Part shown: piece by piece, positions 1 to 36,199 of the stretch
Layout of the letters: every line of letters starts with the position of its first letter
Numbering within the stretch: the first letter of the stretch is position 1
Assembly: GCA_028873825.1 (NCBI GenBank)
Contig: JAPPNM010000039.1
Location: 1-36,199, forward strand
Direction of reading: 5' to 3'
DNA from: Gemmatimonadota bacterium
Lineage (GTDB): Bacteria; Gemmatimonadota; Gemmatimonadetes; Longimicrobiales; Gaopeijiaceae
DNA length: 36,199 nt
The notes under the pieces: generated by a model
Database searches by the model: none
What the model saw: only the letters and a program-made list of their open reading frames with translations
What the model was told of the DNA's origin: nothing
Position numbers and translations under genes: made by a program

Positions 1-233
1 CCGCCCGAGCACCGAGAGCGGCGAGGCGCCGGGCCGGCAAGGCGCGACGAAGGGAGGGAAGGGACGACGCGGGGTGCGGTCATGGGCTCCGATCCGGCTG
101 TGGAGGTTTGCGGGGGGCGGGAACGCCCGCCCAAGATCCGGCGGCGAGGCGAGGCGCGCAAGGCCGCCCCGGCGCCTCCCCAGGCGGGTCCGCGCGCCGC
201 TAGCGGTCCTTGGATTTTGTCCACGGGCCGCTA
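1..233 (-). repeat. Dispersed inverted-repeat element, copy 1 (right end outside the window)
   Basis: Read on the minus strand, the element begins at 233 with TAGCGGCCCGTGGACAAAAT and ends with a GC-rich arm at about 50-1. That arm matches 18784-18833 at roughly 46 of 50 positions and also matches 30204-30248. The opposite tip, seen at 18834-18851 and 30251-30268, would fall just before base 1. Expected full length is therefore about 250 bp, like copy 2. The middle (about 60-200) does not resemble the other copies. A second inverted half-site, CTAGCGGTCC, sits at 200-209. The element abuts the permease so closely that the TAG at 231-233 is both its tip and the permease stop codon. Confidence 0.65.
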
Positions 234-3645: not shown

Positions 3646-5250
3646 TCAGTGCCAGCGGCGGTTCGTCTCGGCCTTGTGGAGAATATGGTCCCTGAGTCGG
3701 CGCGCCACGCCGTGTTCGATGCAGGGAACGGACACGGTATCGCTGGCCAGGGCGATCTCGAGGGTCGCGAGCCCCCTCCGGCGCTCCAGCGGCGACCGCC
3801 TCACCGTCACGCTCTGCGCCTTGCGGAAGAGGAACGCGTCGACCCTGCGGCCCACGAGTCCGCTGCGGACGGCCAGACCGTCCTCGTCGTGAAGGTATCC
3901 CCGGCGGCGCCAGCGCTGGAGCGCGACGAGACCGCCGATCAGGATCCAGGAAAGACCCCATGCGCCGGAGAATGCGGCCCACGCCCGCGTGGGCCCGGTC
4001 AGGGAGAGCAGCAGGAGCGAGCCGCCCAGCGCGGGCACGCCGCCGGTCCGAAGCAGGAGCGCCTGGACGTAGACGCGGGAGACCCGGGTGAACGGCCCGC
4101 TCTTGGGCAGGAGCACGACTCCCGCGCCCTCGCGGCCGAACACCCCGGAGCGCAGTTCGTCCGCCAGCCGGGCGTCCAGCAACGGGACTTCGAGCACGTC
4201 GGGGACATCGTGATGCGATGATGCGCGCGCATCGGCGGCCGGATGGACGCGCAGGCGATAGCGCCGGAAGCACCGCATGACCGCGTCCTGGTAGAGCGTG
4301 AGCTGCTGAATCCTGGCGGTCTCGACGGTGACTTCCCTCCGGGTGAGGAGGCCGCCGCGCGAGCGGTAGGCGGTCCCCTCGCGCCAGAGCGTGAAGCCGT
4401 GGTGGCGGAGCAGCGCGGTTCCGATCCCGAGGGCCAGGACTACGGCCAGGGCGGCGAGGACGAGGCCGCCGGCGAAGGTTGTGTCGCCCAGGGCGTCGGA
4501 GCTGGCGATGGTGGCTTCGGCGGTCTCGAGCGCGGGGCGTACGAACTCCTCGGAGAACCCGAAGGTCTCGGCGAACCGGTAGGGCAGCTCGCGGGGACGT
4601 CTCCAGGCCGCCGCGATAAGCATCGCGGCAAGCAGGACGATGTCGCGCCCGATGCCGATGCGGACCATGTCGCTGCCGCCCAGCTTGAGAAGGGGTTCCC
4701 CGGGGGTCCGGTTGCGATCCCGCAGCCCGCCGTCCTCCTCGGGCGGCGCGGGCGTCCCGGGGCGAGCCTCGCGGGTTCGCGCCGCGGCGGCTATCCTCGC
4801 GCGAAGCTCGTCCGCGAGGGCGGCGCGGACGGACGGCAGCTCGCCCTCGGTCGTCCCCGACCCGGCCGTGTCCATCCTCACCGTGACCAGCCCGAGCAGG
4901 CGGTCGACGGGCGAACGCCGGACGTTGATTCCCTGGATGCGTTCGAAGGGCAGGTCGAGGGCGGTCTTCCTGAACACGCCCTCGCGAATGAGGATGCGGT
5001 CTTCGGCGATCCTGAAGCGGAAGAACCAGTACTTGAGAACCGCTCCCGCAACGACGGCCGCGATCGCGGCCGGGATCAGCAGGGGCGCGTGGGGTGCCCC
5101 CCTGACAAGGACCGCGATCGCGCCGAAGGTGGCGACGAGCTGGACGTAGCCCCGCACGGCGTTGCGCAGCGTCCTGCCCACGAAGAACACCGCCGCGAAC
5201 GGGGAGATTCGCCTCCAGGCGCCGGGGTCGGGGTCGGGTGGGTTCGGCAA
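3646..5250 (-). CDS. YdbT-like bacterial PH-domain membrane protein (paralogue 2)
   Basis: Membrane protein of 534 aa built from bPH2 (DUF304) domains between paired hydrophobic helices, as in Bacillus YdbT. It opens with helices at about 20-65, and the first PH-like domain follows (YWFFRFRIAEDRILIREGVF, IQGINVRRSPVDRLLGLVTV). A second domain lies mid-protein (GFTLWREGTAYRSRGGLLTRREVTVE), and a C-terminal domain carries FLFRKAQSVTVRRSPLERR. It matches the upstream gene along its whole length, including the final RRWH, so the two arose by tandem duplication. Start is TTG at 5250, 21 bases after the upstream stop. In Bacillus ydbST contributes to intrinsic antimicrobial resistance; that role is not shown here. 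Confidence 0.88.
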   Translation of the reverse strand: MPNPPDPDPGAWRRISPFAAVFFVGRTLRNAVRGYVQLVATFGAIAVLVRGAPHAPLLIPAAIAAVVAGAVLKYWFFRFRIAEDRILIREGVFRKTALDLPFERIQGINVRRSPVDRLLGLVTVRMDTAGSGTTEGELPSVRAALADELRARIAAAARTREARPGTPAPPEEDGGLRDRNRTPGEPLLKLGGSDMVRIGIGRDIVLLAAMLIAAAWRRPRELPYRFAETFGFSEEFVRPALETAEATIASSDALGDTTFAGGLVLAALAVVLALGIGTALLRHHGFTLWREGTAYRSRGGLLTRREVTVETARIQQLTLYQDAVMRCFRRYRLRVHPAADARASSHHDVPDVLEVPLLDARLADELRSGVFGREGAGVVLLPKSGPFTRVSRVYVQALLLRTGGVPALGGSLLLLSLTGPTRAWAAFSGAWGLSWILIGGLVALQRWRRRGYLHDEDGLAVRSGLVGRRVDAFLFRKAQSVTVRRSPLERRRGLATLEIALASDTVSVPCIEHGVARRLRDHILHKAETNRRWH

Positions 5251-5271
5251 GGCTCGGCGGACGTGGGCGGG

Positions 5272-6969
5272 TCAGTGCCAGCGCCGGCGGCTCGACTCGG
5301 CGCGGTGGAGCACGCGGTCCCGCAGACGGCAGGCCAGGCCGTGGTCGATGTACGGGACGGCAACCCGCCCGCAGGCGAGCTGGACCTGCAGCGTCGCGAG
5401 CCCCTTGCGGCGTTGCAGCGGCGACCGGTTGACGGCGACGCCCTGCGCCTTGCGGAAGAGGAACGCGTCGACCTTGCGGCCGAAGAATCCGCTGCGGCTC
5501 GCCAGGCCGTCGCGGTCGTGAAGGTATGCCTGACGGCGCCAGCGCTGCCAGGCGAGAAGGGCGGCGGGCGGCACCAGGACGAGCCACCAGAGGAAGACGC
5601 CCAAGGCCGCGGCCACCGCTGCGCCGCCGCCGGGCGACGGGGCCGGGAAGCCCTCCCCGGGCGGCGCCCCTGCCCCGTCCGCGAAGTGGGCGCCCGCGAG
5701 CGCGGCAAGCAACGGCGCCAGGAGGGGTGCCGAGACCAGCGCGGCCGCGACGCTGATGCGCAGCGTGAGCGCCCGGACGTAGTGGGGCGAGACCCGGACG
5801 AACCCTCCGTCCTGGGGCACCAGCGTAAGCGACCCGCCTTCGCTTCCGAACACCTCCGACCGCAGCTCCTCGGCCTTCGGGGCCTTGAGGAACGGCACTT
5901 CGAGCACCTCGGTCCTGCCGATGCCGGTTCCCTCGACTCCCTGGCCCGGGAGCAGAGCGGCCGGCAGCGCCCGCAGCCGGAATCCGCGGAGGAGGCGCAT
6001 CAGGAGGTTCTGGGACAGCGTGAGCTGCTGAATCTTGGCTGTTTCGACCACGACCTCCCTCTGCGTGAGCAAACCCGCGCGCGACCGGAACGCGCCGCCC
6101 TCGCGCCAGAGGGTGAAGTCGTGGTAGCGCAGGAACGCCCCGCCGATCACAACAGCCAGCACAAGGGCCAGCCCGGAGAGCACGAATCCCGCCACCAGGA
6201 GCGTCTGCACGATCTCGTCCGCGGCCTGGAAGGCGGCCTCGGCGGATTCCATGGCCGACTCGACGGCGTCCTCGCCGATCTGGAGGACTTCGCTCAACAA
6301 TCCGAGGAACGCCGCCGCGAGCACGATGTTGCGGTTGGCCAGGCCGATGCGGACGATGTCGCCGGCGGCGAGCCTGAGCACGATCTCCCCGCGGGCTCCG
6401 GCCCGCCCGGCCGCGGCGGGGGCGACCTGGCCGGCCGGCTGCCCGTCGTCGTCCCCGGCCGCGCCGGCGCTCCGCGCGGGACCTCCGGCCCCCGCCTTCG
6501 TGCGCAGCCACTCCGCCAGACCGGTGCTCACCGACGGCAATTGGCCCTCTGCGGCGACCGATCCCGCAGTGTCCAGGCTGACGGTCACGAGGCCCAGGAT
6601 CCTGTCGACCGGCGAGCGCTCGACGTTGATCCCCTGAACGCGGTCGAAGGGCAGATCGAGCGCGGTCTTCCGGAACACGCCCTGCCGGATCAGGATCCGG
6701 TCCTCTTCGAGCCTGAACCGGAAGAACCAGTACTGGAGCACCCCTCCTGCGACTATGGCCGCGATTCCGAACGGGATCGCCAGTACGGCGGCGGGAATCC
6801 GCTCGATCAGAACCGCGAGCGCACCGAAGGCGGCGACGAGCTGAATGAAGCTGCGGGCGAAGTTCCTGACGGTCCTCCCGGCAAAGAAGACGATCGCGAA
6901 CGGGGAGGTCCGCTGCCACACGCCGGCGCGGACGCGTCGCCGCTCGAGTGCATTGATGGTGCGGTCCAC
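5272..6969 (-). CDS. YdbT-like bacterial PH-domain membrane protein (paralogue 1)
   Basis: Membrane protein of 565 aa with the same plan as its downstream neighbour. A helical pair lies at about 20-70, then a bPH2 domain (YWFFRFRLEEDRILIRQGVF; VQGINVERSPVDRILGLVTV). A mid domain contains DFTLWREGGAFRSRAGLLTQ, and further hydrophobic segments precede a third domain with AFLFRKAQGVAVNRSPLQRRKG. A low-complexity Gly/Ala/Pro stretch lies between the second and third units. The GTG start at 6969 is 6 bases past the stop of the YdbS-like gene, indicating translational coupling. It probably acts in the cytoplasmic membrane as part of a three-protein complex; function is inferred from family only. 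Confidence 0.88.
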   Translation of the reverse strand: MDRTINALERRRVRAGVWQRTSPFAIVFFAGRTVRNFARSFIQLVAAFGALAVLIERIPAAVLAIPFGIAAIVAGGVLQYWFFRFRLEEDRILIRQGVFRKTALDLPFDRVQGINVERSPVDRILGLVTVSLDTAGSVAAEGQLPSVSTGLAEWLRTKAGAGGPARSAGAAGDDDGQPAGQVAPAAAGRAGARGEIVLRLAAGDIVRIGLANRNIVLAAAFLGLLSEVLQIGEDAVESAMESAEAAFQAADEIVQTLLVAGFVLSGLALVLAVVIGGAFLRYHDFTLWREGGAFRSRAGLLTQREVVVETAKIQQLTLSQNLLMRLLRGFRLRALPAALLPGQGVEGTGIGRTEVLEVPFLKAPKAEELRSEVFGSEGGSLTLVPQDGGFVRVSPHYVRALTLRISVAAALVSAPLLAPLLAALAGAHFADGAGAPPGEGFPAPSPGGGAAVAAALGVFLWWLVLVPPAALLAWQRWRRQAYLHDRDGLASRSGFFGRKVDAFLFRKAQGVAVNRSPLQRRKGLATLQVQLACGRVAVPYIDHGLACRLRDRVLHRAESSRRRWH

Positions 6970-17743: not shown

Positions 17744-18494
17744 ACCACATGGGTCGTACGACGCGCTCTTCATAGTGCGGCTCCAGGAGACCGACGGCAC
17801 GAGAATCGGCCGCCAGCCCGATGTGCCCGGACCTGTCATCCAGGATCCGGGCGACGGGCAGCAGGCCATCGTCTGGACCTTCCAGGTGGGGAACAACGAA
17901 CCCGTGTCCGTGGATTTCGGCCAATTCGGCAGTGCCGGGGACCGCCGTCGCGCGATGGCCATGAGTATTTCCGGCGAGCTTCGGTCACACGCGCCCGGGC
18001 TCCAGGTCGCCGCCTTCGACCCCGATGACGACGACTGCGGCGGACTCGCCTCGGGATGTGGCGGCGGCGGCGGTGGGGGAGGTGGAGTTGGCCCGGGGGG
18101 CAGAGACGGCTACGAAGTGTCGGACCATGATGCGTGGTTCGACAAGCTGACGCTACATCGCAACCTCGACCATTGGGGAGACTCCGAGCTTCGCTTGGTC
18201 TTGTCTTACAAAGCTGCCCCGAACCATCGCATAACTGCAACGCTAGAGTTCAATAATGTCGACGAAGGCAAAACTATCGATACCGACCAGCTGTTCATGC
18301 CTGTATCCCCGGTTCGGAACGGTGCCAAATTCTGGCTCAAGGCGTATGAGTCCGACCCTGGGCCGGACGACCAATTGGGAAAAATCAGACTCTACTGGAA
18401 CGATAGCGGAGAAGAGCTGGAGTTCGACGAGAACGATGACGACAAGAAGGACTTGAGCGTCTGGCTGTATTGGGAGTCGGATTCTGATGAATGA
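17553..18494 (+). CDS. Two-domain protein of unknown function with a poly-glycine linker
   Basis: Not recognised. Convincing protein begins at about GTYWDPDVPVFTIYELSGYS (17665 on). An N-terminal beta-rich domain (to about 18045) is followed by ten near-continuous glycines (about 18060-18090). A second domain contains RLVLSYKAAPNHRITATLEF, KFWLKAYESDPGPDDQLGKI and a very acidic tail (DENDDDKKD) ending SDSDE. The tail and DPGPDDQLG-type stretch recall calcium-binding beta-sandwich (C2-like) domains, which is a guess. GC content falls visibly after the glycine run. No start in this frame has a ribosome-binding site; the likely start is at 17516 in another frame. The stop overlaps an ATG of the next frame as ATGAATGA. 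Confidence 0.55.
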   Translation: MGPGRRNPGRRSSDGPARFSFPSRHRRSWTGTSRIAVGTYWDPDVPVFTIYELSGYSRQVKDAEPHGSYDALFIVRLQETDGTRIGRQPDVPGPVIQDPGDGQQAIVWTFQVGNNEPVSVDFGQFGSAGDRRRAMAMSISGELRSHAPGLQVAAFDPDDDDCGGLASGCGGGGGGGGGVGPGGRDGYEVSDHDAWFDKLTLHRNLDHWGDSELRLVLSYKAAPNHRITATLEFNNVDEGKTIDTDQLFMPVSPVRNGAKFWLKAYESDPGPDDQLGKIRLYWNDSGEELEFDENDDDKKDLSVWLYWESDSDE

Positions 18495-18600
18495 CCTGAC
18501 AGCGTCATTGCCGGGACGCCTGTTGAGACCCGGAGGAGGGCCCCGCCGCCGCGGGACCCTCCACCGGGCCCCCTGGTGCCTGCGCTTGGCGGCCGGTGCC

Positions 18601-18851
18601 TATCGGCCCGTGGACAAAATCCCCCCGGCATTCGAGCGGCGATGCATCCGGCCTGGACGCTTCGCCCCGCCCCTCGACAACGTAAAGACAACTTTACATT
18701 ATGTCATGTCCAGTATACATTTTACGCTTCCAAGGCTGCGCTCTGCGTTGCTCCTCAGTCCAATAGCGCTGCTATTGGCCCCTCGTCGCGCCTTGCCAGC
18801 CCGGCGCCTTGCCGCTCTCGGTGCTCGCGGGGCTTTATCCACGGACTGCTA
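18601..18851 (+). repeat. Dispersed inverted-repeat element, copy 2 (complete, 251 bp)
   Basis: The most complete copy. The left tip TATCGGCCCGTGGACAAAAT (18601) and the right tip, read inverted from 18851 as TAGCAGTCCGTGGATAAAGC, match at most positions and both begin with TA. Inside lie, in order, a GC-rich left arm, and an AT-rich core at 18682-18725 (GTAAAG-ACAA-CTTTAC hairpin, then ATGTCATG and TATACATTT). A hairpin CCAATAGC-GCT-GCTATTGG follows at about 18770-18788, then a GC-rich right arm at 18782-18833. No transposase frame fits, so it is non-autonomous (MITE-like). TA ends are what an IS630/Tc1-type enzyme leaves; that assignment is inference. Confidence 0.75.
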
Positions 18852-18870
18852 CCGGGCAGTCCTCACGATC

Positions 18871-21156
18871 ATGTGCCTGCACGCATGGCCGACCGCTCTT
18901 TCCGGAGCACTCCAAGACCCCGAGGCGCCCTCCGGGGACGCCGGCTGGGAGCTGAGGGTTCTGGACAGTGAATCCGGTGTTCCGCTCGGGGGCGTGTTGG
19001 TTTCCTTCCCCGGTCTCGGCGCGAGCGGCGTGACCGACAGCCTAGGCATCGCCCCGGTTCCTCCGGGAATCCGCGACTCGCTGCGCGTCGTCGCCACCCG
19101 GGTCGGATACTCGGCAATGGACACCGTTGTGGCGCCTCCCGCGACCGGATCCGCGCTCGACTTGCCGCTCGTCCGTTCGGCCGTCGCACTGGCTGCGCTG
19201 ACGGTGAAGGCGGAGCGCGCCGGAGCGAACTCGCGCGAGTTGGCCCGGCGGATCTTCGAGCGAGAGGTGGCGGTCGGGGCGGTGGGGATGACCCGGGCCG
19301 GGGTCCGCGCGGTGCCCGCCGTGGGCGAGGCCGACGTGTTCCGCAGTCTCCAGTCGGTTTCGGGGGTGACGAGTGTCAGCGACTTCGGGGCGGAGATGTT
19401 CGTGCGCGGCGGAGACGCCGACCAGGTGGCCGTTCTCGTCGATGGCGCCCCGGTCTTCGGCCCGTATCACATGTTAGGGCTGATCGGAGTGTTCAACCCG
19501 GACGCGATCGAGTCCACCGAGCTCTACAAGGGATCGATTCCGGCCCGCTACGGCGGGTCGCTCTCCGGGGTCGTTTCGGTCCGGCAGGCAACGGGGGCGG
19601 CGGACGGCGCGTCGTTCAGCGGGGGACTGAGCGCGCTGGGCCTGCGCGCCGCGATGAAAGGCGCGCTTCCCTGGGCCCACGGCAGATGGCTGGTGGCGGG
19701 GCGAAAGGCCACCGTGGACGTGGCGCGACTGCCGGTGCCGTACTCCTTCCACGACATCAACGCGGTCGTTCACCTGCATCCCTCGGAGGAGCACCGCCTC
19801 GGGGTCTCGCTGCTGGCTTCGAACGACCGCTTCGCCTGGGACTTCCTGGAGATGGTCGAGTTCGGGCACTCCATCCGTTCGGACTGGACGAACCTGGTGT
19901 CCTCGGTAACTTGGTCGTGGGCACGGGGGAACCGGATCTCCAGCGACGTGTCGGCGTACCTCAGCCGCTACGAGGCCGGCTTGGCCACCGGGCCGGAGAT
20001 TTCGGCTCTGGTCACCAGGAACCGGATCCGGGCCCGGGGCGTGCGGGCCCAGATCACGGTCCGGGGGAACGTCACCGGGATGCGGGGCGGGTTGGTGCTG
20101 GAGGGTGGCCCGGTCGACCTGTCGGGTACGGGGACGGGCGCGTACATTGAGGGCGACGCGTCGGGCACATATCTGTATGGGTCGGCCTTCGCGGAGGTCG
20201 AGCACTGGATCGGGGCGCTGAGGCTGGCCCCCGGGATCCGGGCGGGGACGGAACGCGGCAGTTCGCGGGTCTTCGCCGAACCCCGACTGTCGGCACGCCT
20301 CCACCTGGGCGCATTCGCGGTCAGTGGCAGCCTGGACCGCAGCTTCCAGTTCCTCTCGGTGCTCCGAGACGACCGGCACATCGCGCCGGGAGCTCCGATG
20401 TGGTTTCTGCGTGGGGAGAGCCAACCGGTGTCGGTGGCCGACGGCATGAGCGTGGCGGTGGACTATTGGCGGGGCGGGACCTGGACGGCGGCGGCGACCG
20501 GCTGGACCCGCCGGTTCTCCGGCATGCCAAGCTGGCATCCGGAGTCCTCACGCGATCTCTCCGCGCTGGAGTTCCACGACGGCACGGCCGCCGGGTGGGA
20601 GGTGGCCTTGCAGAAACACGCGGGCCTCCTGCGTGGCTGGGTCTCCTACCAGCAGGCGTGGGTGAGCTTTCGCGACGGCCAAGCCGGAGAGTACTCGCCG
20701 CGGTGGGACCGCCGCCATGAGTTCGACGCCACGGTGAGCATAGCGGATCCGGGGGGCCTGAGCCTGTCGCTGCGGGCGACCGTGGCCTCCGGCGCGCCCT
20801 TCTGGTATCCGGTCGGTCGGCTCTACGGGATGGCCTACGATCCGAGAGGCCGGGTCAGAAACGAGAACACGCCGAACAACCCCGTCGAGGGTCTCGGCCA
20901 GCGCGAGGATCGTTTCGTTATCCTGTCCGATGTTCAGGGCCGGCTGCCCCACTACGGTCGCGCCGACTTCCTGGCCCGCTACGCCTTCGGCTGGGGAGAC
21001 TTGACGATCGTGCCGTTCCTATCCGTCCCCAACTTCACGATGCGGGAGAACGTGCTCGCCTACAGGCCCGTCGCCGAAACCCCGGACGGCAGGTACCTGG
21101 TCAGAGAACGCCAATTCCCCCCGTTTCCCTTCGTCGGAGTGGACTTCAGGTACTGA
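18871..21156 (+). CDS. TonB-dependent outer-membrane receptor with carboxypeptidase-like N-domain
   Basis: Outer-membrane active transporter, about 761 aa from ATG 18871. It starts with a CarboxypepD_reg-like beta-sandwich (WELRVLDSESGVPLGGVLVS; TDSLGIAPVPPG), then the plug (VFRSLQSVSGVTSVSDFGAE, MFVRGGDADQVAVLVDGAPV, ALYKGSIPARYGG-type segment at about 19530). A 22-strand-type barrel follows, ending in the aromatic FVGVDFRY. The start is uncertain. The frame is open back to 18487 through the repeat element, where an ATG overlaps the upstream stop (ATGAATGA). An ATG inside the element (18706) would give a signal-like run SALLLSPIALLLA. Coupled by one base to the DUF4249 gene, as such pairs usually are. 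Substrate unknown. Confidence 0.88.
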   Translation: MCLHAWPTALSGALQDPEAPSGDAGWELRVLDSESGVPLGGVLVSFPGLGASGVTDSLGIAPVPPGIRDSLRVVATRVGYSAMDTVVAPPATGSALDLPLVRSAVALAALTVKAERAGANSRELARRIFEREVAVGAVGMTRAGVRAVPAVGEADVFRSLQSVSGVTSVSDFGAEMFVRGGDADQVAVLVDGAPVFGPYHMLGLIGVFNPDAIESTELYKGSIPARYGGSLSGVVSVRQATGAADGASFSGGLSALGLRAAMKGALPWAHGRWLVAGRKATVDVARLPVPYSFHDINAVVHLHPSEEHRLGVSLLASNDRFAWDFLEMVEFGHSIRSDWTNLVSSVTWSWARGNRISSDVSAYLSRYEAGLATGPEISALVTRNRIRARGVRAQITVRGNVTGMRGGLVLEGGPVDLSGTGTGAYIEGDASGTYLYGSAFAEVEHWIGALRLAPGIRAGTERGSSRVFAEPRLSARLHLGAFAVSGSLDRSFQFLSVLRDDRHIAPGAPMWFLRGESQPVSVADGMSVAVDYWRGGTWTAAATGWTRRFSGMPSWHPESSRDLSALEFHDGTAAGWEVALQKHAGLLRGWVSYQQAWVSFRDGQAGEYSPRWDRRHEFDATVSIADPGGLSLSLRATVASGAPFWYPVGRLYGMAYDPRGRVRNENTPNNPVEGLGQREDRFVILSDVQGRLPHYGRADFLARYAFGWGDLTIVPFLSVPNFTMRENVLAYRPVAETPDGRYLVRERQFPPFPFVGVDFRY

Positions 21157-29982: not shown

Positions 29983-30268
29983 TAGTCCCGTACTCGCATT
30001 CGAGCGCCCGGTCGGAGTCGTTACCTTGTCAGTCCGGGACACACGGATGTGGCCGGAGATCGAGAAGGGCCCGAACCGCCCACTGGACGCGACCGAGGAG
30101 GGAGGGGAGCCGGCATGTATGCAGGTGGTCCCATGAGCGAAGCGACAAACCGACCGGCTGCGCTCCGCGTTGCTCCTCGGGCGAATAGCGCTGCTATTCC
30201 CCCTTCGTCTTGCCGGCCCGGCGCCTCGCCGCTCTCGGTGCTCGGGCGGCTTTATCCACCGACTGCTA
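29983..30268 (+). repeat. Dispersed inverted-repeat element, copy 3
   Basis: The right half is secure. Positions 30155-30268 match copy 2 from GGCTGCGCTC through the hairpin AATAGC-GCT-GCTATT, the GC-rich arm and the tip GGCTTTATCCACCGACTGCT, followed by AA. The arm lacks five bases (GCGCC) relative to copies 1 and 2. The left tip is weak: TAGTCCCGT at 29983, then GCATTCGAGCG, matching copy 2 only with a deletion. The AT-rich core is absent. The element lies directly before the coiled-coil gene, whose GTG is 21 bases past the tip, so it may carry that gene's upstream signals. Confidence 0.6.
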
Positions 30269-30288
30269 ACCGCCGCGGGGGTGGTCCG

Positions 30289-30843
30289 GTGACTCCGGAA
30301 TTCGTCGCCATCCTGAGTGTCGGAGTTTCTCTCCTGGGGATCGGCGTCTCGCTGGCGGTCATGCTGGTGAGGCTGAGTGGAGTGCTGCGGACCGACCTGA
30401 AGATCCTGCGAACGGACATTAACGCGCTTCGAACCGAGCTGAAGGGCGACATCGACTCCCTCAGGACCGAGCTGAAGGGCGACATCGACTCCCTCAGAAC
30501 CGAGCTGAAGGGCGACATCGACTCCCTCAGAACCGAGCTGAAGGGCGACATCGACTCCCTCAGAACCGAAAGGAAGGGCGACATCGACGCCCTCAGGACC
30601 GAGTTGTCCGAGTTTCGCAGGGACGTCAAGGAGGAGTTCGTAGTTCATCGAACCGAGACTCGCGACGACACCGCCGCGCTACGTGGCGAGATCGCCGCCC
30701 TCCGAACCGAGTCCAGAGAGGACATTGGCGCATTGCGCGTCGAGCTGGCCGGTCTGCGGACGGACACCCGGACCGATATCGCCGCGCTCCGGGCTGACAT
30801 CCGGGATCGCCTCGGCTCCAGGCGGTCATCGTCGGTAGCCTGA
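30289..30843 (+). CDS. Membrane-anchored coiled-coil protein built on 11-residue repeats
   Basis: Not a recognised enzyme. From GTG 30289 it is 184 aa. One N-terminal transmembrane helix (FVAILSVGVSLLGIGVSLAV) is followed by an almost unbroken helix of 11-residue (hendecad) repeats. Its centre has five copies of LRTELKGDIDS, and degenerate copies continue to the end (LRTDTRTDIAALRADIRD). Leucine and isoleucine spacing and alternating acid/base residues predict a long coiled coil, probably cytoplasmic. Proteins of this shape act as spacers or scaffolds; no specific function can be given. The frame is open further upstream through the repeat element, but only this start keeps the helix as a clean N-terminal anchor. 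It converges on the suhB-like gene. Confidence 0.65.
   Translation: MTPEFVAILSVGVSLLGIGVSLAVMLVRLSGVLRTDLKILRTDINALRTELKGDIDSLRTELKGDIDSLRTELKGDIDSLRTELKGDIDSLRTERKGDIDALRTELSEFRRDVKEEFVVHRTETRDDTAALRGEIAALRTESREDIGALRVELAGLRTDTRTDIAALRADIRDRLGSRRSSSVA
30433..30597 (+). repeat. Five 33-bp tandem repeats inside the coiled-coil gene
   Basis: Units start at 30433, 30466, 30499, 30532 and 30565. Units 2-4 are almost identical at the DNA level; the fifth has ACCGAAAGG in place of ACCGAGCTG. The period is 11 codons, so copy-number change keeps frame. Confidence 0.95.
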
Positions 30844-30968: not shown

Positions 30969-31814
30969 TCACCCGGTTCGATTGGCTGCCGATCGACGTT
31001 GTAGCCCGAGAATCAACCTGAGGGACTTCAATCCCTCCTCCGAATTGGCCGCCATCACCGACCCGGCCACCGGCCCCACCCCACCTCCCTCCACCCGCTC
31101 CACCACGCCCCCCGCCTCCGTCACGAGCAGCGCCCCCGCACCAAAATCCCACGGCCCCAGGCGCGACTCCCAGAACCCGTCCAGGATGCCGTTCGCCACA
31201 TAGGCCAGGTCTATTGCCGCTGCACCTGTCCGCCGCACCCCCGCGGTTCGCCTGAGCGCCCGGTCGAGCTGCGCCAGATACTCCGGCAACGCCGCGTGCG
31301 CCTTGAAGGGAAAACCGGTACCCAGCAGGTAACGGCTCGTTCTCGCGGTGCCGCTGACCCTAACCCGCTCGCCGTTCTCGCGGGCACCGAGTCCGCGCGC
31401 CGCCGTCCACACCTTGCCGAGCGCCTGCGCGTCCACGGCCGCCGCAACGGGCCCCTTCCCGTCCCAGACCGCCACCGAGGCCGCGTGGTAGGGGTGTCCG
31501 TGCAGAAAGTTGGTCGTGCCGTCGAGCGGGTCCACGAGCCAGAGATGCTCGCCGCCGGCCGCACCCGCGCGGCCACCGCCCTCCTCCTCGGCCAGGATCG
31601 CGTGGCCGGGGTGCCGTTCGGCGATAACCGCCATCGCGGCTTCCTGCGAGGCCATGTCCACATCGGACACGAAGTCGCTCGAGGCGGTCTTCTCGCTCAC
31701 CCACCGTCCGCCGCCGCGCCTCGCCGCCTCTCGGTGGACCCGGGCCGCCGCGCGGGCGGCTGCGGTCGCCGTCGCCAGCAGGCGCTCGACGTGTTCACGA
31801 TGTGAGAACGACAT
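30969..31814 (-). CDS. Inositol monophosphatase family phosphatase, SuhB-like
   Basis: Mg-dependent sugar/inositol phosphatase of 281 aa. Metal ligands are visible: E76/E77 in ILAEEEGG, the signature LWLVDPLDGTTNFLHG (91-106) and WDFGAGALLVTEAGG (from 222). K42-x-x-SSDFVSDVD near the N-terminus is the usual opening. Family members hydrolyse inositol-1-phosphate, histidinol phosphate or 3'-phosphoadenosine phosphates, so the substrate is open. The ATG at 31814 lies inside a decayed copy of the dispersed element (31802-31935), which therefore forms the gene's 5' end and leader. Divergent from trpS; convergent with the coiled-coil gene. Confidence 0.92.
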   Translation of the reverse strand: MSFSHREHVERLLATATAAARAAARVHREAARRGGGRWVSEKTASSDFVSDVDMASQEAAMAVIAERHPGHAILAEEEGGGRAGAAGGEHLWLVDPLDGTTNFLHGHPYHAASVAVWDGKGPVAAAVDAQALGKVWTAARGLGARENGERVRVSGTARTSRYLLGTGFPFKAHAALPEYLAQLDRALRRTAGVRRTGAAAIDLAYVANGILDGFWESRLGPWDFGAGALLVTEAGGVVERVEGGGVGPVAGSVMAANSEEGLKSLRLILGLQRRSAANRTG

Positions 31815-31935
31815 TGCAAGATGTCACTTCCAGCATACGCTCTTCCGTTCCGAGCCTCGGCCCCCGGGGCCAGGTAGCGCGGCACTCTCGTCGCGCCTTG
31901 CCGGACTCGCCTCCCCGGCGCGGGCACCCGCCGCC
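31802..31935 (+). repeat. Dispersed inverted-repeat element, decayed internal fragment (copy 4)
   Basis: 31802-31856 aligns without gaps to the core of copy 2 (18682-18736) at roughly two thirds of positions, including ATGTCA, TTCCAGCATAC and CTTCC. CTCGTCGCGCCTTGCCGG at 31887 matches the right arm exactly over its first 16 bases, but the spacing is 15 bases shorter, so the AATAGC hairpin is missing. No tips are found. It occupies the divergent gap between suhB-like and trpS; apart from it, 31815-32116 holds only upstream sequence, with GTTAACTTAG at about 32009 as a possible -10 region. Confidence 0.5.
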
Positions 31936-35659: not shown

Positions 35660-36199
35660 TTGAACGATCTCCCCAAACCGGTGCCGGAGGCTCAAGACCC
35701 GGGGGGCGATTTCTGCCGCCGCCGGCGCGGGCGCTCGTGCTTGCGCGAGGATGATCTCATTGGTCAGTGTATAGGCGATTTCCGGCGGCGGCGGGCGCTG
35801 GCGCTCATGGCCGACGCTTCCCTGGGAACCTCGGACGAGGGAAAGATCGATGGCACGGATCCTGAAGCGCGTGGTTCGCTGGGTGCTCGAATGGTTGTTG
35901 AAGAAGATTTAGCGGTCCGTGGACAAGATTCCCCGACATTCGACCGGCGGTGCATTCGTGCCGACCGCTTCGCTCAGCTGGCCACACTTGTAAACTCTGT
36001 TTTACATAATGTCATGTTTACTATACATTTCCGAGGTCAGGTCGCGGAGCACCGGCGAGCCGTCCTCGTTGTGTTTCGCCGCCGGTCGCTCCCTGGTAGC
36101 CCGTGGACAAATCCCCCCCGGCATTCCTATGAAACAATGCCAGTGAGCGCAGCGCGTTTCAGCCCCGCGGGGTGGCCGCTCGCGGCCATGGGAGATTCG
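35660..36199 (+). CDS. Open frame from a TTG with strong ribosome-binding site; runs off the window
   Basis: GGAGGA (35647-35652) lies 7 bases before TTG 35660, a textbook spacing. The frame reads NDLPKPVPEAQDPGGDFCRR and stays open for 180 codons through the two element copies to the end of the window. Not recognised. Only about the first 55 codons have the GC-rich third positions usual here; beyond about 35840 third positions turn AT-rich while another frame (35850-35912) looks coding. Positions 35706-35730 and 35774-35798 are a degenerate duplication (GGCGATTTC plus CGG repeats). The original gene may have been short and cut by the element at 35910, or this is a leader frame. Confidence 0.22.
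   Translation, partial: MNDLPKPVPEAQDPGGDFCRRRRGRSCLREDDLIGQCIGDFRRRRALALMADASLGTSDEGKIDGTDPEARGSLGARMVVEEDLAVRGQDSPTFDRRCIRADRFAQLATLVNSVLHNVMFTIHFRGQVAEHRRAVLVVFRRRSLPGSPWTNPPRHSYETMPVSAARFSPAGWPLAAMGDS
35850..35912 (+). CDS. Candidate 20-residue cationic amphipathic peptide
   Basis: ATG 35850 to TAG 35912 encodes MARILKRVVRWVLEWLLKK plus a final Ile. Charged residues fall at 3, 6, 7, 10, 14, 18 and 19 with hydrophobics between, giving one polar and one apolar face on a helix, net charge about +5, two tryptophans. A purine-rich GAGGGAAAG lies 4-5 bases upstream. Third positions are mostly G/C, unlike the overlapping frame. The stop codon is the tip of element copy 5. It resembles small membrane toxins or lytic peptides in physical form only; it could also be the C-terminal helix of a longer frame lost to mutation. 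Confidence 0.35.
   Translation: MARILKRVVRWVLEWLLKKI
35910..36096 (+). repeat. Dispersed inverted-repeat element, copy 5 (left half)
   Basis: Left tip TAGCGGTCCGTGGACAAGAT at 35910, then GACATTCGACCGGCGGTGCA, and the AT-rich core at 35990-36032 (TGTAAA-CTCTGT-TTTACA hairpin, ATGTCATG, TATACATTT). Tip-to-core distance is 80 bases, against 81 in copy 2. After about 36035 the sequence no longer follows copy 2; the right arm and tip are missing, replaced by unrelated sequence and then another left tip at 36097. Confidence 0.65.
36097..36199 (+). repeat. Dispersed inverted-repeat element, copy 6 (left end; runs off the window)
   Basis: TAGCCCGTGGACAAATCCCC at 36097, followed by CCCCGGCATTC, matches the left tip and arm of copy 2 with a three-base deletion in CGG and loss of one A. 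Beyond 36127 it diverges. Two adjoining stems, CCCCGCGGGG (36163-36172) and TGGCCGC-TC-GCGGCCA (36173-36188), lie close to the window end. Confidence 0.55.

What the first reader, a model, noticed from the sequence alone, without database searches (positions are those of the whole stretch)
18601..18851. A family of about 250-bp TA-ended inverted-repeat elements, at least six copies in 36 kb
Copies at 1-233 (minus), 18601-18851, 29983-30268, 31802-31935 (core and arm only), 35910-36096 and 36097-36199 share one plan: tip consensus TAGCGGYCCGTGGACAAAAT, left arm, AT-rich core, small AATAGC hairpin, GC-rich right arm, inverted tip TAGCAGTCCGTGGATAAAGC. No frame inside looks like a transposase, so they behave like MITEs or large REP-type elements. 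Tip divergence and missing modules show different ages, while the 50-bp right arm is over 90% conserved between copies 1 and 2, suggesting recent conversion or function.
Basis: seen in the sequence. Interest (0 to 1): 0.75.

Follow-up and report, generated by a model that had tools for sequence, protein, structure and literature searches.

The report
Mini-transposon family in Gemmatimonadota genomes
The window carries one complete and several decayed copies of a 245-bp "hitch-hiker" transposon without a gene of its own, present in well over a hundred places in this genome; its ends match those of a gene-bearing jumping element of the same genus, while its inner part recurs in other genera behind different ends.

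Summary
The repeat is real. Window 18604-18848 is a complete 245-bp non-autonomous element; seven fragments accompany it. Its genome holds 340 tip matches against 1 for a reversed control, and all 23 genomes searched of the genus (Gemmatimonadota, Longimicrobiales by named relatives) have it.

It is a MITE, but not IS630/Tc1-type. Target duplications are 4 bp, CTAG-like. The same tips bound ~1.5-kb IS elements with an IS1182-like transposase in six genomes of the genus, including this one, where both copies found are broken.

Further: (1) its structured core recurs in other genera behind other tips, of which 5 of 10 automatically paired ends clearly match IS630 ends; (2) core pairing covaries between genera; (3) between co-directional genes the element lies sense at 40 of 51 sites (p 6e-5); (4) an IS110 element sits at one exact base in the four copies opened, of six truncated there; (5) two identical copies lie in frame in TonB-receptor genes, but in-frame placement is rare (2 of 71). 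IS1182-linked MITEs are known; one core with two tip sets I did not find in print (four searches).

The parts
18604..18848 (+). complete non-autonomous element, 245 bp (CGG...CTG; family consensus CAG...CTG)
   Evidence: profile hit E 7e-78; alignment with 26 other full copies of this genome; length 245
18600..18603 (+). left target duplication, CTAT
   Evidence: 4-bp duplication shown statistically over 145 tip pairs; this pair matches 3 of 4
18849..18852 (+). right target duplication, CTAC
18604..18622 (+). left terminal inverted repeat (consensus CAGCCCGTGGACAAAATCC)
18830..18848 (-). right terminal inverted repeat (consensus CAGTCCGTGGATAAAGC)
18667..18734 (+). AT-rich 68-bp segment of the long form; absent from the short forms and from the other-genus elements aligned
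   Evidence: split BLAST hits 1-66 / 135-251; alignment A2
18735..18827 (+). conserved core with small hairpin 18760-18778 (CCAATAGCGCTGCTATTGG)
   Evidence: shared with other genera; covariation
18487..21156 (+). open frame of a TonB-dependent receptor gene, read in frame through the element; the element interrupts what looks like the signal-peptide region
   Evidence: Plug domain, translation, element-free orthologue in G007, empty-site reading
30155..30268 (+). fragment: right half
   Evidence: E 3e-32
35910..36052 (+). fragment: left half
   Evidence: E 1e-22
31763..31933 (+). fragment: middle
   Evidence: E 3e-10
1..75 (-). fragment: right arm, cut by the contig end
   Evidence: E 5e-12
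36094..36146 (+). fragment: left tip
   Evidence: E 2e-5
   Evidence: E 4e-4
   Evidence: E 1e-3

Best explanation
A MITE: a short transposon without its own gene, moved in trans by the transposase of an IS1182-like insertion sequence that carries the same ends (CAG[G/T/C]CCGTGGA[T/A/C]AAA). The transposase would bind the two inverted ends, cut the element out or copy it, and insert it at a CTAG-like site, duplicating 4 bp. The interior is an imperfect palindrome with a conserved core that does not resemble that IS beyond the ends. Shown here: the copies, the shared ends, the 4-bp duplications, element-free sites, and IS copies with the same ends in the same genus and genome. Inferred: that this transposase moves the MITE, and that the core helps in this or in its tolerance by the host.
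For: Copies: 340 tips within one mismatch against 1 in the reversed-pattern control, so at least about 170 elements or pieces. TSD: exact 4-bp match in 22 of 145 tip pairs against 5.7 (max 17) in 500 shuffles; where neither side is CTAG, 16 of 107 against 2.2 (max 7 in 1000 shuffles), 4 of the 16 being CCCG junctions of tandem arrays; lengths 1-3 and 5-9 stay within the shuffles. IS elements with two convergent matching tips ~1.5 kb apart around the transposase: G000:C57, three in G001, one each in G005, G007, G015, G018. IS left ends match MITE ends at 16-18 of 18, right ends at 14-16. DUF772 + DDE_Tnp_1 and best NCBIfam family IS1182, E 5e-55 and 2e-51, for the two proteins scanned. Element-free sites: TonB orthologue in G007; the C67 site reads DREVLVGAVG when the element and one CTAG are left out, like EREVAVGAVG of the window paralogue. 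Two copies identical over 246 bp in this genome suggest recent activity.
Against: Both IS1182-like copies found in this genome are broken; whole frames are seen only in sister genomes (three in G001, one in G015, and by tblastn G005). The IS1182 match is under the NCBIfam cut-off (187 and 176 of 270 bits). Only 22 of 145 pairs keep an exact duplication. Of the PF01609 matches in the genus only 30 loci plus those fetched by place were looked at; of 41 in G021, which is rich in elements, three were, and none had the tip pair. No transposition was observed.
Confidence: 0.85

Rival explanations
1. IS630/Tc1-type MITE with TA target duplication.
For: TA stands at both ends of many copies; IS630-type transposases occur in 7 of 23 genomes of the genus, and elements with the same core in other genera do carry IS630-like ends.
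Against: Duplication is 4 bp, with matching variants such as TTAG/TTAG, CTAT/CTAT, CCAG/CCAG. 0 DDE_3 matches in this genome. IS630 ends readable in the genus are TAGTGTWGTGTCC, and IS630 copies rather lie beside these tips.
Confidence: 0.05
2. A host-recruited element: an RNA or DNA structure with a function in operons (for instance transcript processing or relief of polarity), kept by selection and only incidentally mobile.
For: Core conserved between genera while the tips change; covariation; sense orientation in 40 of 51 co-directional sites.
Against: Copies are dispersed and in many deletion states; flank clusters shared by more than one genome are 5 of 95, and some of these may be repeats in the flanks; tandem arrays occur. 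No Rfam family reached its threshold in the window. Two promoter-like sites in the window copy are absent from copy L020. The orientation bias can come from loss of harmful antisense copies alone.
Confidence: 0.2
3. Protein-embedded palindromic elements like the Rickettsia RPEs, spreading inside genes in frame.
For: Two identical copies lie in frame in two TonB-receptor genes in two different frames; net insertion 249 bp; of the six consensus frames one is stop-free and one has only the TAG at its start.
Against: Only these 2 of 71 distinct full copies examined are shown to be in-frame intragenic.
Confidence: 0.05

Closest known systems
MITEPye1 of Paracoccus yeei (PMC11578231, passages read)
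   Same: Non-autonomous, 18-bp terminal repeats like those of IS1182-family elements, 4-bp direct repeats, preferentially intergenic
   Different: 1-3 copies per chromosome there against well over a hundred here; the passages read describe no core shared between genera behind other ends
IS1182 family (ISPse1: IR 16/16, DR 4, PMC3281130, table passage)
   Same: 4-bp duplication; NCBIfam IS1182 is the best family of the partner transposase
   Different: Those are autonomous; the element here has no gene. The IS of this genus scores under the NCBIfam IS1182 cut-off
Rickettsia palindromic elements (review PMC10969869, passages read)
   Same: Can sit in frame within genes; palindromic (by name)
   Different: In-frame placement is the exception here (2 of 71)
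REP elements / BIMEs (recalled; PMC2817692 seen only in a search listing with the start of its abstract)
   Same: Many palindromic copies; an IS110-family element uses them as an exact target (IS621/REP: recalled)
   Different: Here 245 bp with terminal repeats, target duplications and a DDE-type partner

Membership tests
MITE (non-autonomous DNA transposon) | short, no transposase gene, many dispersed copies | tested here: met
   245 bp
MITE (non-autonomous DNA transposon) | terminal inverted repeats and target duplications | tested here: met
MITE (non-autonomous DNA transposon) | autonomous partner with the same ends | tested here: met
IS1182-dependent MITE | 4-bp target duplication | tested here: met
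   family value
IS1182-dependent MITE | partner transposase belongs to IS1182 | tested here: inconclusive
   best NCBIfam family but 187 and 176 bits against a cut-off of 270
IS1182-dependent MITE | moved in trans by that transposase | not testable with these tools
   needs a transposition assay
IS630/Tc1-type MITE | TA duplication only | tested here: not met
IS630/Tc1-type MITE | IS630 element with the same ends | tested here: not met
   no tip pair that bounds a DDE_3 transposase in the loci; tips seen beside some of them belong to neighbouring elements
Rickettsia palindromic element | frequent in-frame placement in genes | tested here: not met
   2 of 71
REP/RAYT | linked Y1 (RAYT) transposase | not tested
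   no search for Y1_Tnp was run

The most novel reading that the evidence does not exclude
A modular, very old lineage of non-autonomous elements whose structured core is kept while its ends are exchanged, so that it can be moved by unrelated transposases: IS1182-like in g1, g12 and g78, IS630-like in other genera of the phylum, and possibly more in other phyla (a Desulfosarcina plasmid has the core motifs). The core would then be the conserved working part, with a role in transposition or in making transcribed copies harmless to the host.
Probability: 0.5. Interest if true: 0.75.

Novelty: new variant of a known kind. Interest (0 to 1): 0.55.

Why it matters
In a MITE one expects the ends to be kept and the middle to decay (general knowledge). 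Across these genera the core is kept and the ends differ, which makes it testable whether a parasite of transposons can change its helper by swapping ends. The copies probably also help to explain why this draft genome is broken into many contigs (inference), and they offer an exact natural target for an IS110 element in bacteria known mainly from metagenomes.

Tried and rejected
Rejected: IS630 parent (duplication length). Rejected: larger tip-to-tip segments as autonomous parents. L218 is a copy split in its AT-rich core by DNA with a DDE_Tnp_1_4 transposase (IS1380-type: recalled); L217 holds a DUF222/HNH gene; L197 a phage integrase. Rejected as a rule: in-frame (RPE-like) mode. In one search, 7 of 71 copies have the same strand and frame on both sides, 2 of them without stops (L002, L165); one search shows a stop at the left edge of L165; the window copy, which the codon test missed, was added by homology. 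13 of 71 have one strand but different frames and may be disrupted genes or two genes; not resolved.

Led nowhere: IMG/VR scans (0 hits; the pattern had a spacer one base too long, and repeats it corrected, without its first base); plasmids with the long form (none); phages with an other-genus form (none); one search found only the Desulfosarcina plasmid itself; two short chance-like matches; literature on the sequence motif (three papers, off topic by title), IS1182 with 4-bp duplication (none), Gemmatimonad MITEs (two papers, listing only), sponge MITEs (one, listing only), different terminal repeats (none). Palauibacterales paper PMC10469786: term search, no 'transposase', 'MITE' or 'repeat' in its text. 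The claim that the core/tip exchange is not in print rests only, in an open-licence library; of the 12 papers, passages of two were read. The first alignment of TonB loci used unturned loci and was redone.

Against my reading: a core tree without the indel columns does not group the two sets of IS1182-type-tip cores; the g78 cores join L252/L253 (SH-like 0.917), although g1, g12 and g78 share a 10-11-base insertion. So number and direction of tip changes are open. The automatic TIR scan found a pair in 12 of 20 loci: 2 with IS1182-type ends (16 of 18) and 10 others. Of these 10, 5 match an IS630 end at 16 of 18 (L244, L246, L248, L252, L255), L245 at 13 (IS1182 12, so undecided), L250 and L251 at 12 (about the 99% level of shuffled tips, 12-13), and L247 and L254 were picked 5 or more bases too far in and score 7; read from the outer TA, L254 scores 17, and L247 has the same left end as L246, 16. 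No pair was found in 8 of 20 (three of them g78 loci whose CAGYCCGTGG tips are visible).

Full report
Observation. A repeat search on the window and a profile of 55 outside copies confirm the family: one complete copy at 18601-18851 and seven fragments at E 0.0014 or better. A search of the window's own genome (G000, 3.31 Mb, 183 contigs) gives 42 matches at E<=0.001, with only 40 of 474 first-look candidates scored, and 340 tip matches (169+171) within one mismatch, against 0+1 for the reversed pattern (100 places listed). As an element has two tips, this means at least about 170 elements or pieces. Many listed tips lie within about 60 bases of a contig end, so copies seem to break the assembly. 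Flanks of the 27 full copies aligned look unrelated.

Where. Of the 59 genomes searched (own included), 34 match, from 12 of 31 genera; all 23 of the genus do. In a draw of 395 genomes of the phylum 90 match, from 37 of 138 genera, some weakly (at most two candidates per genome scored). Named records with an exact tip are a Longimicrobiales MAG (OX638356.1, same length as G001), Gemmatimonadota RHO1_bin_51 and Gemmatimonadetes jk18x1bzbins.83.

Ends and target. In 145 tip pairs (all loci then held; some pairs may join tips of different elements) the duplication peaks at exactly 4 bp: 22 exact against 5.7 expected (max 17 in 500 shuffles), and 16 of 107 against 2.2 (max 7 in 1000) where neither side is CTAG, 4 of the 16 from tandem-array junctions. 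The true ends are therefore CAG...CTG, 245 bp in the window, with a CTAG-like target. Size classes: 240-259 bp 56 of 145, 160-179 bp 32, and minis of 40-59 bp 11, made of little but the two tips (examples).

Partner. PF01609 transposases occur in 15 of 23 genomes of the genus. Of the 30 loci returned, 5 have the element's tips as a convergent pair about 1.5 kb apart (G000:C57, G005, G007, G015, G018), G000:C81 shows one exact tip, L292 one 3-mismatch tip, 23 none. The three G001 copies were fetched by place and have the pair. The G000:C81 copy is shortened (two tips 0.9 kb apart). Two of the proteins were scanned: DUF772 and DDE_Tnp_1, best NCBIfam family IS1182 (E 5e-55 and 2e-51, under the cut-off). 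An IS1182 element with a 4-bp repeat is on record (ISPse1, PMC3281130, table passage), and so is an IS1182-type MITE with 4-bp repeats (MITEPye1, PMC11578231, passages). In G000 both copies are broken, as are those of G007 and G018; frames are whole in G001 (three) and G015 and, by tblastn, G005. Short multi-copy contigs may be missing from this draft (inference).

Core. The 143-227 part is what other genera share. The genus-only profile finds it in 20 of 20 other-genus loci fetched, E 5e-24 to 1e-9, none in the reversed loci (the loci had been chosen by similarity to the element, not by their tips). Around it g78 and g12 keep IS1182-type tips, while many others have CTAGTGT...CAGAA ends like the IS630 ends seen in G157, G273, G338 and G001 (full counts in Tried and rejected). 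For the structure, 23 of the 35 stretches extracted were aligned (array duplicates and misbounded ones dropped, two re-bounded). Its 31 pairs, predicted from the same alignment, have 94.4% of cells paired; 16 pairs change on both sides, 60 cells against 18 in shuffles (0 of 500 reach it), and slid versions give 3-10. One-sided changes are rare (5 cells), as expected for a DNA palindrome more than for an RNA; this last point is inference. Within the genus alone covariation is nearly absent (3 of 34 pairs). A weak match in a Desulfosarcina plasmid (E 1e-3; nhmmer 1.6e-5; L257) hints at other phyla.

Context. In a codon-usage test of 71 distinct full copies, 49 have coding called on one or neither side within 240 bp. 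The window copy and the identical C67 copy sit in frame in two TonB-receptor genes: the G007 orthologue of the first lacks it, and leaving out the C67 element plus one CTAG gives DREVLVGAVGVT. Of 95 site clusters, 67 have a called gene on each side within about 0.7 kb; 51 are co-directional, and there the element is sense in 40, antisense in 11 (p 5.7e-5); long forms 36/10, short forms 4/1. The clusters come mainly from G000 (38) and G021 (34), and 5 of 95 hold more than one genome. Cause unknown: a benign transcript in sense or harm in antisense.

Traffic at the element. In G021 six matches end at element position 243; in the four opened, an IS110 element (PF02371, PF01548) splits the tip at TCCACG/GACTGCTA; IS parts are nearly the same, element parts differ. 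In three of four near-identical IS630 copies of G001 an end abuts an element or IS1182-like tip at CTAG. Tandem arrays with single 4-bp junctions occur in G021.

Verdict. A MITE family with an IS1182-like partner (0.85). New, as far as searched: scale, phylum-wide structured core, two tip sets.

Noticed in passing
L148, L149, L164, L175 (G021): An IS110-family element inserted at the same base of the right tip in the four copies opened, out of six whose match ends there; the two halves of the tip flank it exactly.
   Followed up: partly
L130, L133, L135 (G001), L125 (G011), L267 (G096): IS630-type elements with TAGTGT-like ends lie directly beside an element or IS1182-like tip, mostly at its CTAG.
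   Followed up: partly
L218:593-4242 (G021): A copy split in its AT-rich core by about 3.4 kb with a DDE_Tnp_1_4 transposase; flanks suggest a TTAAC duplication.
   Followed up: partly
L302 and L321 (G000:C57 and C81): Both IS1182-like copies of this genome change frame at the same place (about residue 152-162); shared decay or a programmed frameshift.
   Followed up: no
L088, L206-L208, L220, L223 (G021): Head-to-tail arrays of the element with a 4-bp junction between copies.
   Followed up: no
L257:1990-2125 (Desulfosarcina sp. BuS5 plasmid): Element with the same core motifs and other ends in another phylum; weak match.
   Followed up: partly
window 30382-30639: Six overlapping copies in register of a 33-bp-period repeat inside ORF 30049-30843, a coiled-coil-like protein (Apolipoprotein and CCDC90-like matches).
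   Followed up: no
window 3656-6797: Direct repeats 70-76% alike with a spacing of about 1.6-1.7 kb, as of two tandem related genes.
   Followed up: no
window 18674-18721: Two sigma-70-like sites on the + strand in the AT-rich segment of this copy, absent from copy L020.
   Followed up: partly
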